A stretch of DNA of 64,000 nucleotides, taken from positions 35,504 through 99,503 of the forward strand of contig JADGJT010000036.1 of the NCBI GenBank assembly GCA_027604005.1, read 5' to 3'. A model generated the notes under the pieces. That model worked only from the letters and a program-made list of their open reading frames with translations. It was not told the origin of the DNA and did no database searches. This DNA is from Dinochytrium kinnereticum. Its lineage: Eukaryota; Chytridiomycota; Chytridiomycetes; Chytridiales; Chytridiaceae. Positions 13,271 through 52,200 of this stretch are shown here, one piece after another. The first letter of the stretch is position 1. Each line of letters opens with the position of its first letter. A program made the position numbers and the translations under genes.

Positions 13271-16200
13271 TCAAACATTTCCACCCTGAAAATTGATCCC
13301 ATAACAAAACGGATCCTTCTCCTTACTCTGCACATAAGTTCCATTAAACCCATTCCCCCACCTTCGATGCTCCATACAAGTTAAATACGCTTCAGGCGCA
13401 CACACCTCCCCATCCGCCCTGTTCAACAACCAAGCCGGGAACGGCACCTGAAACCAAGCGTTCCCATGAAACGCCGCAAACACAAAAGTCAGTGAAATGG
13501 CCAACCCAGAATCAAGCGCCGCGCTTAAAACATAGGAATGCCGTCTCCACCATCCGTGACGGTACTTTTTAACAAAATAGTTCATCAGAATTCCTATGAC
13601 CAATGGGGTGATGAGGTCGGATCGGACTGAACCAACGCCGCTGCCGGGGACGATGGCAATGAGTGGGACGTTGACGAGATGCCAGTACGAGTTGGGGAAG
13701 GCCCGGTGAAGGAGGTAGGGAATGATGGGGGCTAGAAGCCCGATGACGAATCCGAGGAGGGTTCCAAAGTAGGGAGAGCCAGGGCCGAAAAAACGAGCAG
13801 GACCTATTGCACCCCAGATTGCACCGGCGTTCAGGAAGATATTGTAATTGTTGGCTGGTTATTTGAGAAAGAGATTTGGTGTTAAGGGATGTAAGATGGA
13901 TGCTTGAACGCCACGTGAATCCGCAGTACCCAAAAGGCTGTTAAGGCAACTCACCAGTCCAGCCTAAAGGTGGATCGCTTTGGATCCTCCAAAGGTATGG
14001 TGACGATAGGTCGTCTTCCTTCAGTCTAACCCCCAAATCTCTTCCAAAAGACTCATATATTCTGAACGCGACAAACACGTTGATAATCGAGGACATGACG
14101 GTGGCCACCAGCTGTGCAATGAACATAGACCTTGGTGGCACTTTCACATAATGTCCCAACTTCAAATCCGACACAAGCAAAAGCCCCTGATACATTGCCA
14201 TGTAAGACAAAGTCTTGAAGGCCATGACAGCAGCAATCCTCCCAGGCAAAATCAACCCAATGATAAACTCCGACATCACGTTCAACCCAATCTGCTGTCC
14301 GGAGATCGCCTGAATGATCCCAATCGGAAGAATCGACACAACAGCCAAAGCAAGGCCCAACACAACTCCCCACCACGGAAGGTCAAACCCACCAAATTGA
14401 CAAACACAGATCGCAGCAATCGCATTGACCAACAAAAGACCAGCGTACCATGCATCAGGAACATCAGGGTACCGATCCATCAACCTCGCGTGCAAGTCAT
14501 GAGCGTCCAATTCCTTCATGGCGGATGAAAACCTATGCCAAATATCTTTTCCGTACCACAGCGCCGCGTGAACAAGACTTGCGGAGAACGCGACAAACCC
14601 TGCAGAGTATTCGATAGCAAAGAAGGTCGTGATGTAGATTGGACGCTGAGATTCGTAGTAGGGGATATTGAGAGTGAGGTTCTGGCGAAAGACAAAGTTG
14701 CGGGCGGAGATTGCCGTGCCGTTCTTGTTGAACAGGTCAATGGAGTTGAGGGTGCGGCCATAGGGATAGATGAAGAGGGAGTCAGTGCCGTTTGGGCCTT
14801 GAGTAGGATCGGTGCCGAGCTTTTGGTCTATGCCAAAGGCGTTACGGGACCAAAAGATTGGGGTCAAGAACCAGAGAATGAGCCAGACTTTGTACAGAAG
14901 GGGATTTAGTTCTAAAATTCTCTATAAAGCGAAGCCAAAATACTTACGTCCAAAAACCTGATTTAACAAAGCCCACAAAGGCGAGGTAATAGGCGCCAGC
15001 GGAGCAATAACGCTCCAATCAAATGATAATGAGAACAGCCCGATCCCACCATCTGGCATTGCGCTTCCCAAGAAGTTCGCCATCCTCGGATTAGGCATTA
15101 TCGGCGCAAAATAACAAAGAACCGATACCGCTGACAGAATCGGCATGATGTAATTCGGAAGCAAGTGGTAAAGGGCAGCCACTCCCGTCATGATCCAATA
15201 AAACCTAAACCTCGAAATCCCCCATGCCGATCGAACAGATGGAAACGTCGGATCAGAAGTTGCCCTGTTCCTAGATAGCATCCTCTCAAAGTTTTCTATA
15301 ATTCCTTTCTTGTTGGACTGCATTGGAATAACGGATCCAGGCCTAGGAGAAGCTGGCAACTCAGACCTCCCGACTATCGTAAAGGAGCAGTCTACGATAG
15401 ACGGTGTCATAGACCTTCGATTCAAGCTCCCGCTTCTAAGAGTATCCGAAGAGCCCTCGCCTAACTCGCCATCGTGAACCGATGGAGGACGAGGCACTGG
15501 TCTGTTATCTTCGTCCTCATCCTCAAAAGCCTTAGTAGGGATGTTGTGAAGGGAGTTTAGCAGGGCTACAATCGATAAGTTTGAGGGCCAGAGCATTGCA
15601 GCTGGACGGACAAGGTAGCGTCGACAGAGACCGGCTAACCCATAACCCGAGATTTGGGTAACGATGGCAAAGGTAATGCAGGATAAGGTCGTTAGATCTT
15701 CTTGGTAAAGTTGGTATTTCTGGCCAATGATATTGTAAAGGGCGTAGGCTGTTCACAATTAGAAAAGAAAAGCAATAAAGAACCAGAAGTGAAGTAAAAA
15801 TAAGTAGCTAACCTGTATTCGCTCCAGAGTTACAAAACACATAGATTAAGGCGTGCTCTTTGTGGTTAAAGCGTCCAGGGTTGAAGGTGAACTCCTTGCC
15901 ATAAGGCATTTTGTACTTTGTGGTTGGAAGCGTTGCAGCCATAAATAGCCCACACGGGTAAGCCAAAAGAACACCGATGAAAGGGCTAGCATACTTGAAC
16001 GAAAAACGAATCAACATTCTGTCTACATCAAAGAAGCGACGGCGAATGAACTAAGGGTTTGCCAATCACTCACGAAAACATTGGTCCTGAACGAAAAGAG
16101 GGTGTTCGCAGCCGCTAAAACTCCGCAAAAAATAATGCCCAAGAACCACGCCCGGAAGGTTCCCACTGGAAGTTCATGATCATCCGACCTCGACACAACC

Positions 16201-17918
16201 GCGTCAACAATATCATAAATCTCATCCACATAGTCCTCCTCTATCTCTATCTCCTCCCCTTCACTAGCCTTATTGCCCTCATCTTCTACCGGTGATTTCC
16301 GATGAGAAGTAGGAGGAGCTGAGGCTGGGAAATATGCAGACCCAGGAAACGCGCTATCAATAGGAGCGGGGCCGGAGGAAGAACTGGGTGCACTTTTGCA
16401 ATCGGGGCGATCGGAGGTGGTAACAGCCTGTGGAGGAAATTTGAGCAGGTCGACTGTGGCTTTCTTCGGTGCTGAGTTCACGGGGGTTGTGGGTGGATTA
16501 GCGCCTGTGGAAGACAGCGGTTCGGCTGAAGGCTTAGTCGAGTAGGAGGTGTCGGTAGATGAAGTAGAGGTAAAAGATGATATTGGACCAGAAGAAGATT
16601 GGTTTCCTCCTCGCTCCTTCCTCTTTTCCCGGTTCTCCCTCTTTTCCCTCTTGTTACTCTTCTTCTTCATCGCCCCAATCTGATCAATGCTTGGATTCTG
16701 TAGAATCATTGTCGGAGGTGTTCGGCTCATCCCACCCGGCTTTTGCGACGCTTTGCGTGTGACGATTTGAGGGACTACTGGCTGCTCGCTCGCTGGCGTC
16801 AGAGCGTTCGAGGTGCAGCCATTCGATTCGGCGGATGGCTGACTCTGATTCACACCACTGGTGGCGATGTTTGGGGAATCCGTTAAAGATAATTGTGAGG
16901 GTATGGAAGGTAGGCTAGCTGCCGGTATGGCCACGTTGGATGCAGAGTGAATATCAGAGATCGGAGCCTGATGTGCAGAAGGGGTGGACGGGACTTGGTT
17001 GGGTAAATACATCGAAAGTAAATGCTGTAGGGTATCAGGTAACATGGGTCCAGAGGGAATGGCGCTCGCTGGGGCAGAGGGTGGACCGGCATGCATCCCC
17101 AAAATTGATTGCTGAAGTTGGAAGAGCTGCTGCTGTTGTTGCTGAAGGTTTGCTTGCAGCAATTGGAGTTGAAGTAGCCTGTCCGAGTCCAGCTGTGGTT
17201 GAGAGTGTTGCAGAGAACTAAAGGCAGATTTTGAGATGGGAGGATGTGTCGAAAGCAGGTGATGCCGAGAGAGGTCTCCCGAAGACTGTGGATGCGCATT
17301 GGGAGGACTCGGCAGAGTCGGTTGAAACATGACTGGCTGTTCCTTCTGCAAATGCACCGCTGCTTGTACAGATTTCGCCATCGACGTTGTAGAAGTAGGT
17401 ATTTGATCAGGCATCAGGCTCGGGGTTGGGGTCTGCAAAGACAGAGCAGGCTGAGGCGATGGAATCAAATGGATAGGAGAGAATGTCAATGGTTGATGAT
17501 GAAGGACAGCAGTGTCGGGCATTCCGAGAACTTGAGGAACCTGCATAGTCGTTTGCACCATCTGAGCCACGATAGGTGCAGAGTGCACCGGCGAGCCAGA
17601 CACTCCAGGCTGCTCCAATGTGTTCCTTGCGCCATGGGCAGCCTCATTAGACATGGACAAATGTTGTGTGGCCCCGACGGCTGCCTCCAGCTCCAGCTTT
17701 TTCATAGAAAGCCACCGCTGCGCCATTACATGAGCCTGCTGCATCTGCTGAACATTCATGGAGGGCCCAGCCCTCAAGATTGAAGAGTGGTTTACCGTGG
17801 AGGACCCATCTCCAGATACTCCATTGCCCTCAGGTACCGATGCAGCCATCATTCGCATGATGAGCATCATCTGCTCATCAATGCTGTCAGCACCTGCCGA
17901 CCCCCCTGATGAGTCCAT
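13271..17918 (-). CDS. Oligopeptide transporter with giant low-complexity N-terminal extension
   Basis: OPT-family proton-coupled peptide transporter of the plasma membrane. The model has five exons: 16074-17918, 15813-15993, 14948-15748, 13955-14887 and 13271-13854. It is 1447 residues with all phases closing. The transporter proper begins near residue 570 (DAVVSRSDDHELPVGTFR) and shows the family signature NPGRFNHKEHALIYV, then GLNVMSEFIIGLILPGR, LKLGHYVKVPPRSM, GAIGPARFFG and HGWWRRHSYVLSAALDSGL. The preceding 570 or so residues are Ser/Gln/Pro-rich with a Gln-rich segment (residues about 255-285), a dense basic patch (KKKSNKREKRENREKRKERG) and a final acidic stretch. They are in one uninterrupted frame with the transporter. 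OPT proteins are normally 750-900 residues with a short soluble N-terminus, so this length is exceptional. A downstream internal start is possible. Confidence 0.88.
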
Positions 17919-18377: not shown

Positions 18378-21375
18378 ATGGCCGCTCGCCTCTCACCTCT
18401 CCGCAGGCTTCCGGTCTCAGAAACCGAGCAACAGCGCGGAGAGTCTGAGCTCACGCTCGAGGACATTGATCCTTACTACAGCACCCAAGAACTCACCAGC
18501 GAATCCGCCAACGCACCACTAGAAGACCTTTCATTCAAAAAGCGCCGCTCTCGAGTTACAGTTGCAGAAACTGCCGCTCCCCAGCCACCTCCCAATGAGA
18601 GCCCTTTTGACGACCTCACGGATATCTACGATACTGTTGACGCAGTCGTTCCCCGTCATGACGACCCTACTCTGCCGGTCTTAACGTTCCGAGTTATCCT
18701 TCTCGGAGGGTTTTTTTGCGTTGCTTTGGCTTGCGCCAACACTCTGTTCACTTTTAGGACCAATTACTTTTATGCCAACCCCTTTATCGGGGTGCTGATT
18801 TCTTACCCGTTGGCAAAGTTTATGGAGAAGGTCTTGCCAAAAGGAATCTTGAATCCTGGACCATTCAATCACAAGGAGCATGCATTAATCTATGTTGCTT
18901 GCAACTCTGGAGCGAACACAGGTTTGGAGTTTTTATACCTTCATAACTATTTGTCTCTTGTTTCAATAGCAATCAAAGACATTCCCTCCCTTGCTATCCC
19001 TCATCTCCTGTTGCATAACTAACTAAATCAATGTATACAGCCTACGCACTCTACAACATTGTTGGACAGAAGTACCAGCTATATCAGGAAAACCTTACGG
19101 ATGTCTGGGCAGTACTCTTTGCCATCAACACGCAAATCTTCGGCTACGGTCTCGCTGGTCTTTGCCGTCGCTATCTCGTTCGTCCTCCCTCTATGCTCTG
19201 GCCCTCCAACCTTTCCGTCGTGGCCATGCTTAATTCTCTTCATGAGTCTCAAACCCTTTCGGCATCCTCTTCCAACCCAGGATCAAGGTTTAGGTTTTTC
19301 TGGATTGTGACAGGGATCGCAGCATTATGGCAGATTGTCCCTGGCTACATTGCTCCAATTTTCACGGCCGTCAGTGTACTGTGCTGGGTCGCACCGTATA
19401 CTCCGAGACCAGATTTAGTGAGATTGATGGGGAGCGCGCAGCAGGGATATGGGATGGGGAGTCTTTCCTTTGACTGGAATACGATTTCTGTGCTTTCACC
19501 CTTGACCACTCCTTTGTGGGCATTGATTAATCAGGTCTTGGGACGTACGTAATACCATGGACCCACTGTCCCTCAAAAGGCCTTTTTTTCTCAATATCGT
19601 TTCCTCCCCCTTCAATATCTCTTTCTCTATATTCACAAACCTCCCATTTATTAAAAACAGTCTGGCTTTTCGTATGGATTATCACACCTCTCCTCTGGTA
19701 TAATAACGTCTTTGGCAAAGACTACGACCTGGGCTCCCTCCCCAGTCAGGGCCCGAACGGCACCGGCCGTTTCTACCTCTCTCGAGCAATCAACACCCCT
19801 GCTCTCTTCGATAAGACTGGTCGAGCAATACCTGCGCGAAGTTTCGTTACGCTCCCCTCCCTAACCCTCAACGAAACTCTTTACGAATCCGCTCGCCCTA
19901 TTTATATAACCACTTACTTTGCGATGGACTACTTTTGCTCTTTTACTGTGTTCACAGCCGCGTTAGTCCATGTTGCGTTGTGGCATGGAAGAGATATTGT
20001 GAGGAGGTTTAGATCCGCATTGAGGGATTTGGATTCGAACGATATCCATGCTAGGTTGATGGATGTTTATCCCGAAGTGCCGGATTGGTGGTATTGGGGA
20101 TTGCTAGGGCTGAACACGGTAGGCGCGGGCGTTGTTTGCCATTTTGGCGGGTTTGATCTTCCTTGGTGGGGAGTCTTGCTAGGATTGGCTTTGGCGATGG
20201 TGTCTGTTCTTCCCATTGGGATTATCCAAGCTGTATCGGGTCAAGCCATTGGTTTGAATGTCATGTCGGAATTCATGATTGGTTTGATCCTCCCTGGTCG
20301 TATGGCAGCCGTCATGGCCTTCAAAACCCTCTCCTATATGTCTATGTATCAAGGCCTTCTCCTTGTTTCCGACCTTAAACTCGGCCACTACATGAAGATT
20401 CCCCCCCGGCACATGTTTGGAGTTCAACTGGCCACAACGATTGCTTCCTCTATCCTCAACGTTTTTGTTGCCAAAACCATCTACGAGTCATTTGGGCGGA
20501 CCTGCGTCGATAAAGAAGACGGGTCACGAATTTGTGATTTGTGGAAACTCCAAGAGAACCCCCCCCTTGGTTGGTCAGCAACCAACTACAACGTCTTCCT
20601 CAATGCTGGAGCAATCTGGGGGGCAATTGCACCGGCTAGGTTCTTTGGGCCTGGATCTCCTTACCAATGGACGCTACTTGGTTTCGGTATTGGTCTCGTT
20701 CTTCCAGTGATCCCATGGTCACTTCACAAGGCCTTCCCGAAAAGTGGCTGGCATTACGTCAACATCCCTCTTATAGTCATCTTCCCTGGACTCGGGGCGG
20801 GATCAACACGGTCAGAACTGATCACCCCCCTGCTCGTCGGAATCATTGTGAATTACTTTATCAAAAAGCATCGACATGGGTGGTGGAAAAAGTACGCTTA
20901 TGTCATGTCTGCGGCTTTGGATTCCGGCCTTGCAATCACGTTGACTTTGCTGTTCTTGGGATTTCAGAGCGGAATTGGGGCTAGAACTGAGAGTGAGACA
21001 AATAGACTTTTCCCTTTCTGGGCGCTCAATCGTGTTGGTAAGGACAATACTCCTTTCACCAAGTCTTGACTCAATCGCCTTTCCGTTTCTATTCCTCTTT
21101 CAATACCCAACCCCTCACTAAATTCTTTTTTTGCCCCTTCTTGATCTGATATGAACGCCAACTATTTCACAGACGGTGAAAACTGCGCCGAAGACTGGTA
21201 CCTCCGTTGCAGCGAAAATGCAGCCTGGGGAAAAGCATGGGGCAAAACTGGTTACTACCAAATCAAAGAAATCGACCCATTCTGTACAAGTATCAACTTC
21301 CAAAATGGAAATGCTCGAGCGAGACAAGCTGCTTTCGAGAGTGGCATCGTCACAAATGCAACAGATTATTATTAG
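18378..21375 (+). CDS. Oligopeptide transporter (OPT family), standard length
   Basis: Paralogue of the neighbouring minus-strand OPT gene. The model has four exons, 18378-18921, 19041-19544, 19661-21037 and 21173-21375, coding 875 residues. The soluble N-terminus is about 85 residues and leads into DAVVPRHDDPTLPVLTFR. Family signatures follow: NPGPFNHKEHALIYVAC, the long central loop with DIHARLMDVYPEVPDWW, GLNVMSEFMIGLILPGR, LKLGHYMKIPPRHM, GPGSPYQWTLLGFG and HGWWKKYAYVMSAALDSGL. Three intron positions (after SGANT, after QVLG and before WLF) coincide with those of the paralogue. The paralogue's intron in the TG/A site before NNYN is absent here. This gene instead has an intron before DGENCAEDW that the paralogue lacks. 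It probably imports tetra- or pentapeptides or glutathione-like peptides; substrate is unknown. Confidence 0.93.
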
Positions 21376-22093: not shown

Positions 22094-24247
22094 ATGAACA
22101 AAGCCAACTTGCGTTTCGATGGTGTCCCTGTTGGTACGTAAACTCTGCATCCCTCATATCAGGTCCTGATTCCCTTCAAGGTGGTTTCGTAGTGGAGGCA
22201 CGTTATGCCAATATCCTGGCAAAACTTCTTCGGGTGCATGGATGGCTCAAGACCTCAGGCGTGAAAGTGACGCCATTTAAAAGTGACCGCTTGCCAGGTT
22301 GTCAACCTCCTGGTGATGATGGCCAGGTTAATGCTATTTATGTGATTGATATTGCTCGGGATAGATGGAAAGATCTCGTTTGTGATGGTGAGAGGGATGT
22401 GGCGTTGGAGAATGCAGAGGATGACTCCAGGAAAGAGTGCACACAACAGGGCTTGATTGCTGTTCACCTCAATACTAAGGGAGCTGCCGTAATGGAGAGT
22501 ATTGTCTTTGATTACCGTGGAGCTTCATCGGATGACGACCGGAAAGGCGGTTCAGGGATTGAGGAAGAACGGGAGATTCTCTCAGTGGCCTCTTCCATTG
22601 GGGCATTATGGGTTCCTAAGCTCCGAGTTCGATCAAAAGAATGTCTTGGAGCATTTCGAAGCAAAGCAGTCTTATCTTCAAATCCAAGCTCAGACACAAG
22701 CCAATTCAGGTGATCTACCCTTTTCTCATTCTTTCTTCCTCTAAGTGTACTTAGATTCATCGAGCTCTTTGCTGGCATCGGGGGATTCCGATTGGGGTTG
22801 GAGCCGTTGGGTGGAAGGTGTGTTTTTGCATCGGAGATATCGGATGAGTGTAGAAAAGTTTATGCTGCCTTTCACCGGAGAAGGGGAAGGTGCAGTGGTA
22901 TGGCAGATGGTTGTGGTCTCACAACGGGACCAGTAGATAGATTGGGATGCCAGCTCAATGCGGTGGCAGATGAGGTTGAAACTACAGATGGAAGAAGGGT
23001 TGGGACGTGCAAGGAAGCAGTAACTTCTTTATCTCTGGGCGACAACAAGGATAGCCGTGGTAATTTAGCGCTAGGAGAGGCTGGCCAAGAGATTCTTGTT
23101 GGGGATATCACGGAGATTGATGAACAGGATATACCCGACCATGATCTTCTTACTGCCGGATTTCCTTGCCAGAGTTTTTGCAAGGTCGGGCCTAAAACAG
23201 GATTATCCGACACACGTGGGGAACTGTTTTTTGAGGTGAGATTTTTCACTAATGTTGGCAAGGAATACGTTGTAATATGCCGTGTTCTTTATCGTTTAAG
23301 ATTGTGCGTGTCTTGCACGGTAAGAGACCGAAAGCGTTTTTGCTAGAGAATGTGGCAAACCTTCTGGAGTTTGATGGTGGCGAAACGTTTGCGCTAATCC
23401 TATCGCATCTTCGAGGTGAAGGATACCAGTGAGTTGCTTGTTTGTTTTTTTGTTTTTGTTTTTTTTTTTTGAGGGGGGGGGGGGGGGGGGGGGGGGGTTA
23501 TAATTATAAAATTGGGAAAAACAAGTAAATTTTAATTTTTAAATGTGTGGTCAANNNNNNNNNNCCCCCCCCCACACGTCTGCAAGGGGCTCACACTACT
23601 TTTTTTTCAGTGTTCATTGGAGGGTCATTGATGCCGCAGACTTTCTTCCACAGGTTAGAAAGCGGGTATACTTTGTAGGGCTGCGTGAAGACTTGGCAGC
23701 CAGTGCAGACGCATTCGAATGGCCCATTGCTAAACCCTCCACACAAACACTTCGCGATATTTTGGATCCAGATCCACCCGCTGCAGACTTGATCTTGACC
23801 GACAGGCAAATATCTGTCGTTATGTCCACACGCGCATTTCGTCCTAGCAACGGCCACGCTCACGGAGGCTGGACGTGGAGGACAGCAGACGTGGATGGAA
23901 AAGCAAGAACCCTTATGTCTAGCTACAAATCCGCTTTTCGCCTCTGCTCTGAGTTTGTTCCTGTCCCTCTTCCACCACTCTCACCCTCATCCAACCGAAA
24001 TGATCTTATTCGACCATTGCGCTTTTACTCTCCGAAAGAGTGTGCGAGAATAATGGGATTTCCTGACACTATCTTTGGTGAACTTTGGGCGAAGGATTCT
24101 GAGCGTCGTGCATTGCTCGGTGAGGAGGACGGCCCTCTACCAGCCCCCAACGCCTTCTACCACATGATTGGGAATGCCGTATGCCCTCCTGTCATCCGAG
24201 CTATTGGAGAACCGCTGGTCGCGCAGTGGTTGGCCCACTGCTGTTAA
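22094..24247 (+). CDS. DNA (cytosine-5) methyltransferase, bacterial-type, with unrecognised N-terminal domain
   Basis: S-adenosylmethionine-dependent C5 methyltransferase. The model has five exons, 22094-22121, 22163-22709, 22755-23235, 23301-23428 and 23611-24247, coding 606 residues. Motifs occur in standard order: I (RFIELFAGIGGFRLGLE), IV (TAGFPCQSFCKVGPKTG, catalytic Cys), VI (KAFLLENV), VIII (QVRKRVYFVG), IX (YSPKECARIMGFPD) and X (MIGNAVCPPVIRAIGEPL). The wording DTRGELFFEIVRVL and the compact size resemble prokaryotic restriction-modification methylases more than DNMT1, DNMT5, DIM-2 or TRDMT1. The first 192 residues (with GGFVVEARYANILAKLLR and HGWLKTSG) are not recognised. The large insert between motifs I and IV is Asp/Gly-rich. 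Introns 1 and 2 are only 41 and 45 nt. An assembly gap interrupts intron 4 but not coding sequence. All catalytic residues are present. Confidence 0.88.
23473..23573. repeat. Poly(G) tract, assembly gap and poly(C) tract inside an intron
   Basis: Within the last methyltransferase intron there is a run of 25 G (23473-23497), an AT-rich spacer, ten undetermined bases (23555-23564) and nine C immediately after the gap. The gap is thus bounded by homopolymer and its true length is unknown. It lies between the exon ending at 23428 and the acceptor at 23610, so the reading frame is unaffected. Confidence 0.9.
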
Positions 24248-26887: not shown

Positions 26888-28541
26888 TCACCTCAAGGAC
26901 CTCTCCGCACTAATATCAAGAGCCGAGCTTTGATATTTGAAATTTATCAGCCCACTTCTTTTAGGTGCTGGTCTAGATTTAGCTTGACCAGAAGAAGCCT
27001 TAAGGTTCTCAGCATGTTTCAGCCATGTCCTCATTTCACTCTCCAATTCGGCTCTCCTACTCGAGTCCGTCTCTTTAGAAATCGCTCCAAAGAGTATCGT
27101 CAAGGCCTCTTCAAGCTCGGCCAAAGCTTCGCCCGATTTTCCCTGAGACTCAAGAGAAAGACCTCTTCTAAACCCCTCACGGGCACATTGGATATCGTTA
27201 TTCTCGAGTCCTAAGATTGCTTTAAACCACGGCATCGCAGCCCCAAACTGCTTCAGCGTAGTATAATATGACGAGAATTCGTTAATTTGAGAGGATTCTT
27301 TCGGTTGGGAGAAAGAGCTCCGAAACTCCTCGGCATTTTTCAGTGTCCCCTCGACTATCTTGCGAACAATGGTGCCTTTCTCGCTGGCGGCGCCGAGGGG
27401 TCCAAGATAATCGAGAAATGACATGAGATGGCTTAAAGCGTCAGCATATAAAGTGAGGATAGTCTTCTTATCCTCCACTGATGAAGACTTTTTTTTTAAT
27501 GTCTCGGCATCATTAAGCAAAGACATTCCTCGGGCTTCGGACAAAGGTCCTGGGACATACTCTAGGTTCAAGTATTTTTCGGAACGTAACCCCACGCCAT
27601 CGATTCTGTCCGAAGGCTCACGTCTCAAGGTCTTACTGAGTAGATTCTTGGCGTCAGTAGAAAGTTCGATAGAAGGTGGTGGTAACGGGTCAGGTTGGGA
27701 TTCAATAATCAACTTCAAAAGTCTGTCTAAGGACTTCGCCGCCGCGAATGGGGGAGCCCCTTGAAGCATCTCGAAAAAGATAATCCCCAAAGACCAGATG
27801 TCACTCCGTCCATCGTGGGGTTGCTTCTTTAATATCTCGGGCGCGACATACATCAACGTGCCAACGGCTCCTTGATTTGTTGGACCCGCAGAAATCTCAT
27901 CTGTCCAATCTGCAATTCCAAAGTCTGATATTTTTAAAATAGGGCGGTGGCTTTTGTCGGTATTCCCTGAGAGCAATATGTTTTCGGTTTTCAGGTCTCG
28001 GTGGATGATGGAACGATCGTGCAGGAATAAGACTCCAGCTGTCAGTTGGCGCAAAAAATATCGGGCTTCCTGCTCATTAAGCCTTCCACCTGATTTACTG
28101 ATGTAGGTCTGGAGGTTACCGAGATTGCAAAACTCCATTATAATAAACACGTTCTTTGAATCCCACTGAAAGGCCAGTCAGTTGCGCTTATTCGCAAATG
28201 GTTGGCTAACCTCCAAATCTTCGAATTCGACAACATGGATATGTCGCAGGCTCTTCAATATCGCAACCTATCTGATTATCAGATTATGGAATAAAATGAT
28301 ACCTATGCGTCACCTCTTGAAGCAGTCGTTCCATCCGTTGTTCAGACTGTCGAAGCCTCTGGACGGGCACAACTTTTGCCGCCACTAACTTTCCATTCAG
28401 CTGTGATCTTTCGAAAACTCACTCAGCACCAGGATCCAGTTGATAACCTCACCTGTGCCTGCACAAAAACACCTCGCCGGAGGAGCCCTTGCCCAACCTT
28501 CTGACGAGTGTGAAGGAGGGAATGTATGGGAGGTTGTCCAT
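26888..28541 (-). CDS. ULK3: ULK3-like Ser/Thr protein kinase with C-terminal MIT-type region
   Basis: Protein kinase of the ATG1/ULK group, probably acting in autophagy, Hedgehog-type or ESCRT-linked signalling. The model has four exons, 28453-28541, 28314-28407, 28211-28267 and 26888-28165, coding 505 residues. The three introns are 45, 46 and 45 nt. Kinase motifs are complete: glycine loop GKGSSGEV, VAAK catalytic Lys, HRDLKTEN, DFG in ISDFGIADW, APE in YVAPEIL and DIWSLGIIFFEML. After residue 270 two helical segments (LYADALSHLMSFLDYL and CAREGFRRGLSLESQGKSGEALAELEEAL) fit MIT repeats, which in ULK3 bind ESCRT-III. The MIT layout separates it from canonical ATG1. The start codon lies 41 bp from the divergent eIF2B-gamma start. 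Confidence 0.87.
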
Positions 28542-47210: not shown

Positions 47211-49274
47211 GTTGACGGAGTAGTGCGATGGGGAAATGTGTGAATGGATGAATTGCTATCTCCGCTCAATGTGGGTGTGGTCCAAAACAAACTTTCCCAA
47301 GTCGTTTGACCTTCTTGCTAAGAGAGACAGTACGGTTCCGAACGTTGTTGAAGAGAAAGCCAAACGGAGTGAGATGGGTGAAGAAGAAAGACAACAAGGC
47401 GAGAAACCAAACGCAAGAAAGGATGATTAAATCGCAAACAGCTAGCGTGTGCTCAAGACAGCAGCCGTCAGCGACGAGGAAAATAAGAAGGAGCCAGAGG
47501 AGCGGGGGATTTGCAAAGCAAAGTGATTGGGTGAGAGGGCACCAAAATAGAGAATGGGTCATCAACAAAGTAAGTGTGCGGAGGGTGGCGATCTCGCACT
47601 TGTGCCTCCTAAACGAGTCACCGCAGGAGTTGTTGTGGCAACGAAAAGATGGACAGAGAGAGGAGGGGATGAGATAACCAACCTGATGCTCACACAGAGC
47701 AGCCAGAGAGAGAAGGGTTGGAATGTGAGGCGGCAAGGCGGAGATGCTGGGTGGGGTTCAGAGACGTCCGCGTTTCTCCCCAAACAGCGGTCGACGGAGG
47801 GCGAGAGGAGTCGAACGAACACAGCTGGAGCAGTGTGGTGGGGTGGAGGTTGGACTGGCTGCAGCGGCTGTTGCGTGGGTGGGATTGGGGGGAGGGGAGG
47901 CTCCGTCGCTCTGAGCGTGAGCAGGCGGTGTTGACGGTTTGAAGTTGCCTTTGAAAAAGTTTTTTCTTTGTTTTGAGCTGAAATTCAAACACAAAATGTG
48001 ATTAATGTAAAGGAACTGTATCCTGCACGGGATATTCACCAGCTGCTGCATATTTTTATTTTGGCCGGCGGCAGCAGGAGATGCAGATTCGCTGCATCCG
48101 CTGTTCGGAGGGCTTTTGAGAGTGATCGCCAGCAGCGAGATGGGGCGAAAAGGCGTCCGCCTGCCCTGCGGTGGTAGGTAGGAAGGAGGCTGTCACTCTC
48201 CTGCGTGCAACGCTCAAGAGCTGCCTGTCCATCTCTCCCCCCGCATGCAGGCATTGATTGCATGGGTGGTCCATTCTCCTTACCTCAGTGGCGTCACGCC
48301 GTGGCAACAGCAGCGACGGAGGGGGGGAGGTGATTGGCAGCTGAGGGCCGTTCATCCGTCTCTGCTTTCCGTCGGTTGGTCATTGAGGCAGGTTGGTGAG
48401 GGATGAATACACTTGTGGGTGGGTTGGTTCGATGCGCGTGACATTTGACAATTCCTGCAGCCTTGCTATGCCAGCCATCGTCTGTGCGATAAGCAAAGGG
48501 AGATGAATGGATGGATGCACGCATGCCTGTGCCGCTGGCTGGCTGGTTGACTGACTGACCGACTGACCGACTGACTGGTGATTGACTGACTACCTGGCTG
48601 CTGGCTGGTCGGTGCGTGGATACTGGCTGGGATGAGGGATCGATGGGATGCAATGCGTTTCATGGACAACGCGCTCGCTCGACGGGTTTTTTGCCTCACA
48701 GGTGTCTCTCTCTGCCTTCTTTGCTCTCTTCATCACTCTGCTGGCATTTCTCTTTCACCACATTTTTTTAATATAGCCGCTGATGAATCATGCTCAGCTG
48801 CCCGTATTTAAATTGACGCGGACGTGGGGTGATTGTGAACGGCCGTGTGCTTGGCCTTGCCTTTATCTCCACTCTCCAGCGCCCCTTCAGCATTATTATT
48901 CGGCCCAGAGGCCACACCGGCTACCGAGTGCTATCCAAGCACACAGGGCCACAGGCACCACCACCTCGCCTTCCTGCGCTGCGCAACATATGCCAATGAG
49001 CGTGTGTCCTCATGGGTGCGCAGAGTTCGATTGGTCGGAGCACGTCCCAAAGGTCCCTCCCTGATGGTGAAACTCTACATTTATTTTTATTGAAAAAGAC
49101 ACGCTGTTCTGCCTGGCCCTGCACGCCCTTTTTGGCCAAGCTGACCTGATCACCAAAACTGAAATGGCAATAAAAACAAACGTGGGGGGAAGTCCCTAGA
49201 GCTGTGTGTTATCTCCCCAACTCCCTGAGGCCATCGTTGTCGCCGTCATCCGTTCCATTGTTCGTGCGTTCATC
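47211..49274. other. 2-kb divergent intergenic region GSK3 / GPCR
   Basis: This lies between the GSK3 start (leftward) and the class C receptor start (rightward). It is GC-richer than average and repetitive, with several 60-125-codon open frames on both strands but no recognisable domain. It includes the GACT/GGCT array at 48535-48609. It probably holds both promoters and long 5' UTRs. Confidence 0.4.
48535..48609. repeat. Degenerate tandem tetranucleotide array (CTGG/CTGA type)
   Basis: About 75 bp consist almost entirely of CTGG, TTGA, CTGA and CCGA units in a 4-bp register. They begin with CTGGCTGGCTGGTTGACTGA and end with CTGGCTGCTGGCTGGTC. It looks like an ageing microsatellite. Confidence 0.8.
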
Positions 49275-52200
49275 ATGCTCATGAACTCTCTGCTCAATGC
49301 TCTCGCGTGCGGATGCTGGATCGTGCTGTTGATGCATGCTCGTCTGGTGGTAGCGCAGCAGAATGTGGTTAACATTGGGGTCATCATCCCTTACAAGAGT
49401 ATGTTTTTGTGACTGGTGATTGGACTGCACCGTTCCTTGCCATCTTCCTAATCTTGAAGGCACGCGATGCATTCAGCTCACCTTTACATCACCTTTAAAA
49501 CCAATTTATGACCGACCCTCACGCCACACCATTCAAGATCCCGTTTTGAATGGATCAGCTCGAAAGTTGTTAGAAATCACTCAGGAGGACATCAACAGTG
49601 ATCCTATTTACAGGGTACCCAATGTGGAATTCCGTCTTTTATGGAGAGATAGCGAAGGGAGCAAGGGCAAAGGGGTTAACTCTGCCATCGAGTTAGCCAC
49701 CGCCAACAACATGGTTGGCCTGATCGCAGAATACACCTCTGGCGTCACCAACCCTGTCGCGCTTGCCATGGGCAGTTTTGGGGTGAGTTCTGTGTTCTTT
49801 CAGCTGCTTTTCATTTTCTTCATTTTCGCGAACCGTTTGTTGCTAACTTACCATGTTGATTAGGTATATCAATGCTCTGCAGCTTCGACTAGCCCTGAGC
49901 TTAGTGACAAGAACGAATACCCTTACTTTTTTCGAACACTTCCAAGTGACAGATACCAGGGAGCTGCTTTGGCTCGCTTCGTCCAATTCTTTCAGTGGAA
50001 AAAGGTCGCCCTGCTTACCGTCAACACCCCTTATGGATTCGGAAGTGAGTAATGCAAAATCAATGTTCCAATCTAACTGAAAACGCATTTCATTTCCAGT
50101 CGCATCGAACTTCCTCCCGGAAGCCGAAAAGGCCAACATCACTATCCTTCGAAACGAGGCTTTCACCGAAAACGGTCTAGACTTTCGTCTTCAGATTCAG
50201 TCCATTCGTCGATCGGATGCTCGAATCATCATTGTGATTGGTTATGATAATGATGTTATCGTCATGCTGCGGGAAGCTAAAAGGCAGGGAATCTTTGGTC
50301 CGGATTACGTCTGGATTGGCACGGACGGTGTCTTAACTATGTACAATTTGCTGAACGGTACGTAGCAGGGGGTTTTGAATGCTCTGATCGCCTTTCTCGC
50401 CTATTGACTTGCCCATCCCCCTATCCGTTTGTTACCAAAACAACAACAGAGGTCGATACTCGCGGCAACTACACCGACGAAGACCGATCCAACCTTGAAG
50501 GCATGCTGTTTACCTTCCCCAGCGAGAAAGGAGGCAAGGAATGGGACGCCGTCAACTCTCGATACGCAGCCAGAAATAATGGAGAGTTCCCAAAGCCTTT
50601 TTCATACTTTTTCCGTGATTGCCTCTTGACTTTAGCACTTGGAGTGAAGAGACTAGTCACGACCAGGGGGTTTACGATTCAGCAGGTTTTGGAGAGAAGG
50701 ACGAATGTACCAGTCTCTGATTTTATTAACACGCCGTTCAATGGGTCGAGTGGGCCTATGGAGTTTGATGAGAATGCGGATCGTGTTCCGTGAGTGCACT
50801 TTCGTTCTTTTTGCTCAGACGCTTTTGTAATTGGCATATTTGTCAGTTTTTCCCTCTGACACGTTTGTAATTGTTTTTGACCTACCGCAACAAACCCTCA
50901 CCCCATAGCAACTTCATCCTCTACAATGTCGTAAGAAACGCCATCGTTGGCACAATATCCCTAGACTCCAAAGGCGTCATGACTCCAACCATTCCAGTGA
51001 CATTCCGCAGCGGTCTCACGATCCCCCCAAAAGACGGCATTATCCTCCAACGTGAACTGATAGAAATTCTCTCCCCGATCGGCATCTCCATTCTCACCCT
51101 TTATGGTCTTGGAATTATTGCATCTATGGTGTGCTGTGTCATCTTGGTGCTGAATCGAGGAACTGCACCGGTCAAGCAGATGAGTCTGGTGTTTTTAACG
51201 TTGAAGGGGGTTGGTGTTTGTTTGGTTTATGCGTCGGTTTTGGGGTGGGTTGGAAGGGTTGAGGAAACAGGGGGGTGTGCCGTGCAGCAGTGGGTTGGAT
51301 GGGTTGGGTTTTCGTTGGTTATGCAAGGTGTGTAGTTGTTGTTGTTTTCTTTTTCCTTTCTTGCTCTTTCTGGCGGAGCTTCTGTGCTGGTTCATAATTG
51401 CGATATCATATTCCCTTCTAATTGTCCTCGCTGTGGTGTTCTAGGCATCCTACCAAAATGTTGGCGAGTTTTCCGTATCTTTGGTGAGTTGGGGTTTTTA
51501 TCTTTTCCACACTATTATATGATGTATGGTTTCTAAGTGCTTCGTTCCATACGACATTTTACTGTGGTTCATTTTTTCAACAGAGAATAACCGATTGAAG
51601 GTGAGGCCCCAGTTTGTTTTCCGCCCTGTTATCTTGTCAATGGCATATTTAGAATGAAGCAGGATTTGTACTATTTACTAACTTCATTTTGTCTCTCTTC
51701 GAAACCACGCCCAGTCCGTAAAATACCTCAAAGACCCCTTCCTCTTCTCTATCTCATTCATCATAACCCTTATCAACCTCATTATCCTCTCCACCTGGAC
51801 CTACCTCGACCGCCTCGTCCCAACGGAAATGACCATCCTTAACGCTGGTTTCTTTCACTATGAATGTCGCTCTACCTCTTTAGCCCTCCAAAACACATTC
51901 ACCATCCTTCTCATGTCCTATAACGGGATTTTGTTGTTGGCGGCTATTGTCTTGGCTTGGGTTTGCCGGAATGTTCATTCGGCTTACAGGGAGACGAACT
52001 TTATTCTTTATGCTGCCCAAAATATTTTGATCTGTAGTATTGTTGTGGTGGGTCTTGTTTTCGGGGTTTCGGGAGCGGCCTTTGGGGCTGTGCTTTACTT
52101 AAGGGTTTCTCTGACTTGGGTGGCTACTACGTTTGTCATGATCGCTACGGTAACTTTCCCCCCTCTCCCGTTTTCTCTTACGGTGACGCCCACCCTAATT

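What the first reader, a model, noticed from the sequence alone, without database searches (positions are those of the whole stretch)
16074..17918. Oligopeptide transporter fused in frame to a 570-residue Gln/Ser-rich, prion-like N-terminal extension
One uninterrupted 615-codon exon runs from a low-complexity region (Gln run, dense Lys/Arg/Glu patch, acidic end) straight into the first OPT helix. The paralogue next door has only about 85 residues before the same helix. OPT family members rarely exceed 900 residues; this one would be 1447. The composition resembles a nuclear or condensate-forming regulator, so this may be a transporter-regulator fusion, a transceptor, or two genes whose boundary has been lost.
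Basis: partly seen in the sequence, partly recalled or inferred. Interest (0 to 1): 0.75.

Follow-up and report, generated by a model that had tools for sequence, protein, structure and literature searches.

The report
Peptide transporter with very long tail
A chytrid fungus has an ordinary-looking peptide transporter whose gene also encodes an unusually long, floppy tail, probably on the inside of the cell and used to control the transporter; the public gene model seems to have cut most of that tail off.

Summary
Exon 17918-16074 (-) is one open stretch of 615 codons ending at a GTGAGT donor; spliced, the gene gives 1447 aa: a tail of about 556 residues, then a complete OPT transporter. The genome is Dinochytrium kinnereticum. 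Its public model, HDU67_006448, starts at Met404 and has 1044 aa. The DNA suggests that model is truncated: the in-frame composition changes at Met1 and runs past Met404 unbroken, and 0 of 2000 shuffles gave 403 open codons. A synonymous-codon test was inconclusive and start-codon context favours Met404.
The tail looks disordered; no homologue or second copy was found. It misses the recalled Q/N threshold for prion-likeness, which two other OPT tails reach. Of 119 relatives 27 have 200 or more residues before the body, but only 3 of the 79 closest. The transport core is intact.
Best reading: a working transporter with a lineage-specific expanded tail, whose conserved acidic end next to TM1 may serve arrestin/Rsp5-type endocytic control (inferred). 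A transceptor is possible but unsupported. New variant of a known kind, modest interest.

The parts
16074..17918 (-). Exon 1 of OPT-A: 615 codons, tail plus first OPT helix, ending at a GTGAGT donor
16710..17918 (-). Distal tail, aa 1-403: Ser/Pro/Gln-rich, no homologue found, absent from the public gene model
16251..16709 (-). Proximal tail, aa 404-556, present in public model HDU67_006448, which starts at Met404
17091..17186 (-). Leu/Gln-rich segment with the Gln run, aa 245-276, predicted helix (10-residue block means up to pLDDT 90 in a single-sequence model)
16614..16688 (-). Basic helix, aa 411-435 (KR/E-rich); overlaps a short 9/18-bp tandem repeat at 16620-16661
16230..16286 (-). Acidic patch with nearby lysines, aa 545-563
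16188..16238 (-). Pre-TM1 helix, aa 561-577, with DEIYDIVDAVV, the first conserved OPT element
15813..15993 (-). Exon 2 of OPT-A
14948..15748 (-). Exon 3 of OPT-A
15231..15521 (-). Second low-confidence stretch, aa about 752-848; 81 of its columns are gaps in more than 80% of the 48 aligned sequences
13955..14887 (-). Exon 4 of OPT-A
13271..13854 (-). Exon 5 of OPT-A, to the stop codon
18378..21375 (+). OPT-B (HDU67_006449, 875 aa), divergent neighbour with a short tail

Best explanation
OPT-A is a working OPT transporter of the fungal peptide/glutathione kind. Its N-terminal tail, cytosolic by family knowledge (recalled), has expanded to about 556 residues in the Dinochytrium lineage. Shown here by sequence: one uninterrupted open exon joins tail and transporter, the transport core is intact, and the tail is predicted disordered with a few short helices. 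Inferred: the conserved end of the tail (acidic patch, nearby lysines and the DEIYDIVDAVV helix just before TM1) is the regulatory core. It would be bound by an alpha-arrestin that brings an Rsp5/Nedd4 ligase to ubiquitylate tail lysines, so the transporter is taken in and degraded when substrate or nitrogen status changes. The Ser/Pro/Gln-rich distal part would be a phosphorylatable spacer or interaction platform that tunes this or the transporter's place in the membrane.
For: One frame and one exon; 0 of 2000 shuffles reach 403 open codons. The share of C+W+Y+F in the frame is 5.4, 13.8 and 10.2% in the three 60-codon blocks upstream of Met1 (the farthest of which runs into OPT-B's first exon) and 0-3.3% in the eight blocks from Met1 on. 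For aa 1-403 it is 1.7% against 9.5 (sd 1.5) in shuffles and 8.7-16.5% in the other five frames. No intron fits a strict rule in exon 1. OPT core: 597 of 1044 residues of HDU67_006448 at pLDDT 90 or more, its tail mostly below 50; the two Foldseek hits at E below 0.001, of 267 at E up to 10, are barley YS1 7wsr and 7wst. 2 of 125 near-invariant columns deviate, rank 23 of 48. 7 or more D/E in the last 30 residues before the motif in 44 of the 48 OPTs aligned. Long tails poor in C/W/Y/F recur in fungal OPTs. The same genome has 5 Arrestin_C matches, one over the cut-off, and a HECT match with three WW matches close together on contig C152. In yeast, Mup1 and Can1 carry an acidic patch close to TM1 recognised by Art1-Rsp5 (PMC7449699, passages; PMC6597760, passages and one section).
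Against: No RNA or protein evidence. The public model starts at Met404, and Met404 has A at -3 while Met1 has T. The synonymous-codon test does not single out the frame (aa 1-403 z 1.8, other frames up to 4.4; aa 201-403 z -0.5). The acidic feature is weak in 4 of 48 aligned OPTs, one of them the neighbour OPT-B, and no [PL]PxY motif lies in the first 600 residues. OPT-A's terminal branch (0.31) is longer than the median (0.23) and than those of P0002 and P0003 (0.15 each). I have no functional evidence for arrestin control of any chytrid OPT.
Confidence: 0.55

Rival explanations
1. The protein really starts at Met404, as in the public annotation, giving 1044 aa with an ordinary fungal OPT tail of about 155 residues; the upstream 403 codons are untranslated or used only by a minor isoform.
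For: Public HDU67_006448 begins at Met404; A at -3 of Met404, T at -3 of Met1; the tree neighbour P0003 has a tail of 144-154 residues; 76 of the 79 closest relatives have fewer than 200 residues before the body.
Against: Codons 1-403 carry a strong in-frame composition that starts at Met1 and does not change at Met404. An open stretch of that length is not expected by chance. The basis of the public model is not known to me.
Confidence: 0.2
2. Transceptor: the long tail signals peptide availability to a downstream pathway, as the roughly 280-residue N-terminal domain of the yeast sensor Ssy1 does.
For: A transporter body with an outsized tail, the pattern described for Ssy1 (PMC12958826, passages). 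OPT-A also has a second insertion, 81 columns in the alignment and about 97 residues of low model confidence.
Against: The conserved residues of the core are kept (2 of 125 deviations, rank 23 of 48; root-to-tip rank 46 of 90), although the terminal branch is somewhat long. No known signalling domain. Tail length alone does not mark a sensor, since 27 of 119 OPT relatives have 200 residues or more before the body.
Confidence: 0.1
3. Two genes: a separate Gln/Ser-rich regulator gene lies upstream, and the apparent fusion is an accident of a shared frame, an unseen splice or a lost boundary.
For: Entries that join OPT to other proteins exist and may be gene-model fusions: P0082 with Ufd2/U-box, three Penicillium entries with PF04063/PF04064, and P0012 with a 692-residue part of folded-looking composition.
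Against: Here one DNA exon is open throughout: no stop, no intron by a strict rule, and by a relaxed rule 4 candidates where shuffles average 10. No separate homologue of the extension was found.
Confidence: 0.08
4. A neutral expansion: the tail is made as part of the transporter but has little function beyond the conserved last 30 residues.
For: No phmmer match of aa 1-560 to any of 119 OPT relatives at E up to 10; a short tandem repeat in the basic patch; tail length varies widely in the family.
Against: The distal 403 residues hold one Cys, one Trp and one Tyr and no stop, which suggests selection on composition; a single-sequence model predicts several tail helices.
Confidence: 0.07

Closest known systems
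Fungal OPT transporters (PF03169; S. pombe Pgt1 = P0089)
   Same: Complete OPT body, up to 64% identical to listed relatives; acidic stretch before the first helix
   Different: Tail of about 556 residues against about 121 in Pgt1 and a median of 47 in the 79 closest relatives; extra loop of 81-97 residues
Other long-tailed fungal OPTs (P0058 Cladochytrium tenue 396 aa, P0088 Sporisorium graminicola 359, P0092 Kwoniella newhampshirensis 333)
   Same: Long N-terminal tails; Pfam reports only OPT
   Different: Shorter; no phmmer similarity to this tail
Q/N-rich-tailed chytrid OPTs (P0063 Physocladia obscura, P0049 Obelidium mucronatum)
   Same: Gln/Ser-rich tail before the OPT body
   Different: Tails of 218 and 197 residues, richer in Q/N (37 and 35 in 80, against 21 here)
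Yeast Mup1 and Can1 N-tails (arrestin-Rsp5 substrates; passages read)
   Same: Acidic patch close to TM1 with lysines nearby
   Different: Different transporter superfamily; arrestin recognition shown there, only inferred here
Yeast amino-acid sensor Ssy1 (passages read)
   Same: Transporter body plus an outsized cytosolic N-terminal domain
   Different: APC fold, unrelated to OPT; sensing established there, no evidence here

Membership tests
OPT family (PF03169, fungal kind) | OPT domain match | tested here: met
   Exon-wise PF03169 matches over cut-off at G000:C36:49552-51252, 48975-49361 and 51293-51511; hits at up to 64% identity to OPTs
OPT family (PF03169, fungal kind) | Conserved transporter residues kept | tested here: met
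   2 of 125 near-invariant columns deviate, rank 23 of 48; NPG and K[IV]PPR motifs visible in the sequence (motifs recalled)
OPT family (PF03169, fungal kind) | OPT fold | tested here: met
   AF2 model pTM 0.77; best Foldseek hits barley YS1 7wsr/7wst, TM 0.71/0.70 by target and 0.43 by query length; that YS1 is an OPT-superfamily protein is recalled; no PDB match by sequence at E up to 1
OPT family (PF03169, fungal kind) | Peptide or glutathione uptake | not testable with these tools
   Needs an uptake assay
Prion-like domain | At least 30 Q+N in 80 residues (threshold recalled) | tested here: not met
   Maximum 21
Prion-like domain | Self-propagating assembly | not testable with these tools
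   Needs an experiment
Arrestin/Rsp5-regulated transporter | Acidic patch near TM1 with nearby lysines | tested here: met
   aa 545-562 acidic, K541 and K550 close by; 10 acidic of the last 30 residues
Arrestin/Rsp5-regulated transporter | Arrestins and a WW-HECT ligase in the genome | tested here: met
   5 Arrestin_C matches, one over cut-off; HECT match at C152:4-543 and three WW matches at C152:932-1714; that these form one gene is inferred
Arrestin/Rsp5-regulated transporter | Ubiquitin-dependent endocytosis | not testable with these tools
   Needs an experiment
Transceptor/sensor (Ssy1-like) | Outsized cytosolic domain | tested here: met
   About 556 residues if translation starts at Met1; cytosolic side recalled
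Transceptor/sensor (Ssy1-like) | Nutrient signalling through the tail | not testable with these tools
   No genetic data

The most novel reading that the evidence does not exclude
OPT-A is a peptide transceptor: its 556-residue tail and the extra loop form a docking platform that reports external peptide to nitrogen signalling, a case I found no precedent for in the OPT family, and a parallel to Ssy1 built on an unrelated transporter fold.
Probability: 0.1. Interest if true: 0.7.

Novelty: new variant of a known kind. Interest (0 to 1): 0.28.

Why it matters
It points to a public gene model that probably lacks 403 residues. If the tail is made, it shows how far the tail of a fungal peptide transporter can grow while the transport core stays intact. 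A few other chytrid OPTs have long or Q/N-rich tails (P0058, P0063, P0049), so tail growth may be a recurrent, testable route to new regulation in early fungi.

Tried and rejected
Prion-like domain: rejected by the Q/N count. Known domain in the tail: none by Pfam or NCBIfam at E up to 10 apart from the OPT start, none in the PDB by sequence at E up to 10. Homologues of the tail: none at E up to 10 in the extension-alone search (candidates of about 308-980 aa, only the 7986 sharing most words scored); only the public OPT-A itself in the full-length search (7977 candidates scored). Low-complexity words may crowd out weak relatives in both. A second copy in the genome: none found. A hidden intron: none by a strict rule, though that rule's donor pattern would miss 3 of the 7 introns of OPT-A and OPT-B; 4 candidates by a relaxed rule, where shuffles average 10 and 63 of 500 have 4 or fewer, so no more than chance. 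Codon bias as a coding test: inconclusive; the training set of 2747 codons included OPT-A's own body. Paper searches for long-tailed OPTs, chytrid OPT expansion or OPT transceptors gave nothing on point in their listings; two listed papers were opened for passages. The species name gave one paper on another subject, seen as a listing. A search for how this genome was annotated listed 8 of 586 papers, none holding the genus name.

Selections: tail-length counts use 119 of the 120 listed hits of 162 (the protein itself left out), and that search admitted only proteins of about 796-2532 aa. The Q/N count covers the 58 of those with 80 or more residues before the body. The tree used 90 rows: OPT-A and P0002-P0090. 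Alignment A1 used 48 of the 120 listed hits, chosen by me to leave out the fused and most of the very long entries, so its 44 of 48 is not a random sample.
Full report
What was claimed and what is there. This is exact. On the minus strand the frame opens 6 codons before ATG 17918, stays open for 615 codons and ends at a GTGAGT donor at 16073. With exons 15993-15813, 15748-14948, 14887-13955 and 13854-13271 it gives 1447 residues and one terminal stop. I placed these splice sites by eye against the paralogue; the public protein matches the model from Met404 to the end. The divergent neighbour OPT-B (18378-21375, +) encodes 875 aa and is 59-62% identical over the two aligned parts of the transporter.

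Where it is. The window lies in a 22.4-Mb, 558-contig genome. OPT-A, OPT-B and a third OPT on the same contig match proteins named HDU67_006448, _006449 and _006440 of Dinochytrium kinnereticum (_006440 placed), a chytrid of the order Chytridiales. The public OPT-A has 1044 aa and begins at Met404 of the long model, so its tail is about 155 residues, not about 556. The locus tags of OPT-A and OPT-B are consecutive, so no other gene appears to be annotated between them (inference).

Is the upstream part coding? First, 0 of 2000 Markov shuffles of the exon gave a stop-free run of 403 codons in any of six frames (maximum 370, median 139). Second, the amino-acid composition of codons 1-403 is far from chance: C+W+Y+F 1.7% against 9.5 (sd 1.5), Arg 2.0% against 7.2, S+P+Q 37.0% against 25.7. 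0 of 2000 shuffles were as extreme for these three; Lys alone was not unusual (244 of 2000). The other five frames of the same DNA show 8.7-16.5% C+W+Y+F. In 60-codon blocks along the frame, C+W+Y+F is 5.4, 13.8 and 10.2% with 4, 2 and 1 stops in the three blocks before Met1; the farthest runs into OPT-B's first exon. It falls to 0% with no stop in the first block after Met1 and stays at or below 3.3% for eight blocks, with no change at Met404. It is 8.3% in aa 481-540, still tail, and 11.7% in aa 541-600. Third, synonymous codon usage was inconclusive: z 1.8 for aa 1-403, 2.6 for 404-556, -0.5 for 201-403, with other frames as high as 4.4. The first two tests make a coding origin from about Met1 likely. 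They do not prove that Met1 is the start, and they cannot tell one transcript from two.

Start-codon context runs the other way: T at -3 of Met1, A at -3 of Met404. Intron signals inside the exon are absent by a strict rule, which itself would miss 3 of the 7 introns of the two genes, and no more frequent than chance by a relaxed one (4 against a shuffle mean of 10; 63 of 500 shuffles at 4 or fewer).

What the tail is. No Pfam or NCBIfam domain apart from the OPT start, no solved-structure match by sequence, no second copy found in the genome, no homologue in two scans of the large protein set apart from the protein itself, and no phmmer match to 119 OPT relatives at E up to 10. A single-sequence model is mostly below pLDDT 50 (443 of 615 residues), with helices at 13-26, 56-101, 114-122, 245-276 (the Leu/Gln segment), 296-303, 411-435 (basic) and 561-577, then the first hydrophobic helix. 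Such a model is weak evidence. In the aligned model of the 1044-aa protein the tail is again mostly below 50, while 597 residues reach 90; the helix before TM1 has block means of 57-88. A second low-confidence stretch lies at aa about 752-848, where 81 columns are gaps in more than 80% of the 48 aligned sequences. Max Q+N in 80 residues is 21, below the recalled prion-like threshold of 30. Of 58 relatives with 80 or more residues before the body, two reach 30 (P0063 37, P0049 35) and three more have 21-24.

How unusual is it? Among 119 listed relatives, 27 have 200 or more residues before the aligned body and 5 have 400 or more. Of those five, four carry other Pfam domains (P0082, P0091, P0094, P0100). 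The fifth, P0012, has no extra Pfam domain but a composition more like folded protein (C+W+Y+F 9.2%). Some may be gene-model fusions (inference). Leaving these five out, the 556 residues here are the longest; next is P0058 with 396. Most of the long tails belong to more distant relatives: of the 79 closest entries only P0012, P0058 and P0063 have 200 or more, and the median is 47. In the same genome I could read the exon before the body for four other OPT copies; it is open for 60, 145, 45 and 48 codons upstream of the match. Earlier exons and the remaining copies were not read. In a tree of 90 sequences OPT-A groups with P0012 (support 0.85), then P0003 and P0002 (support 0.997), with tails of 702, 154 and 76 residues. 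The long tail is therefore best seen as lineage-specific.

How it most likely works. The transport core looks intact: 2 of 125 near-invariant columns deviate, rank 23 of 48, and the root-to-tip length is at the median (1.18, rank 46 of 90), though the terminal branch (0.31) exceeds the median (0.23). The closest solved fold found is the barley YS1 transporter. The N-tail of an OPT is cytosolic (recalled). The last 30 residues before the DEIYDIVDAVV motif hold 10 acidic residues here and 7 or more in 44 of 48 aligned OPTs; the exceptions are P0006 (OPT-B), P0013, P0017 and P0029. In yeast Mup1 and Can1 an acidic patch near TM1 is recognised by Art1, which orients Rsp5 to nearby lysines (PMC7449699, passages; PMC6597760, passages and one section). 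This genome holds arrestin-C matches, most under the curated cut-off, and a HECT match near three WW matches on one contig. I infer that the acidic end is an endocytic signal and that the distal tail modulates it, for example through its 12 Ser/Thr-Pro sites. No step of this is shown for a chytrid OPT.

Alternatives. A Met404 start, a transceptor, two genes and neutral growth are weighed in the rival list. Ssy1 shows that a transporter relative with a roughly 280-residue cytosolic N-terminal domain can be a sensor (PMC12958826, passages). Tail length is not enough to claim this here. Passages of one yeast transceptor review were searched for peptide cases and gave no OPT-family example (PMC3824880).

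Verdict. A real and correctly described feature. The fusion is real in the DNA, the public model is probably truncated, and the nuclear, condensate or prion reading is not supported. On checking, the statement that long tails are common was narrowed: they are common among more distant fungal relatives, not among the closest ones.

Noticed in passing
window 16710-17918: Public gene model HDU67_006448 starts at Met404; about 403 codons of coding-like sequence upstream are left out of it.
   Followed up: yes
window 15231-15521: OPT-A has a second disordered-looking insertion (aa about 752-848) in the transporter body, with an acidic start.
   Followed up: partly
window 13855-13954 and 15994-16073: OPT-A has two introns (after FRTNVF and after LGWT) that the neighbouring OPT-B lacks in my models.
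   Followed up: no
window 22714-24247: A C5 cytosine DNA methylase gene (PF00145; TIGR00675 under its cut-off in each half taken alone) with a poly-G and N assembly gap near 23476-23565 inside it; closer origin not examined.
   Followed up: partly
window 26888-28177: Ser/Thr protein kinase with a C-terminal MIT match below the cut-off, an ATG1/ULK-like layout (the likeness is recalled).
   Followed up: no
G000 contig C36: Three OPT genes lie on one contig (about 22-25 kb, 49-53 kb, 54-57 kb), two of them head to head.
   Followed up: partly
P0012, P0064, P0075, P0076, P0077, P0082: Several public OPT entries carry unrelated Pfam domains or a long folded-looking stretch and may be gene-model fusions.
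   Followed up: partly
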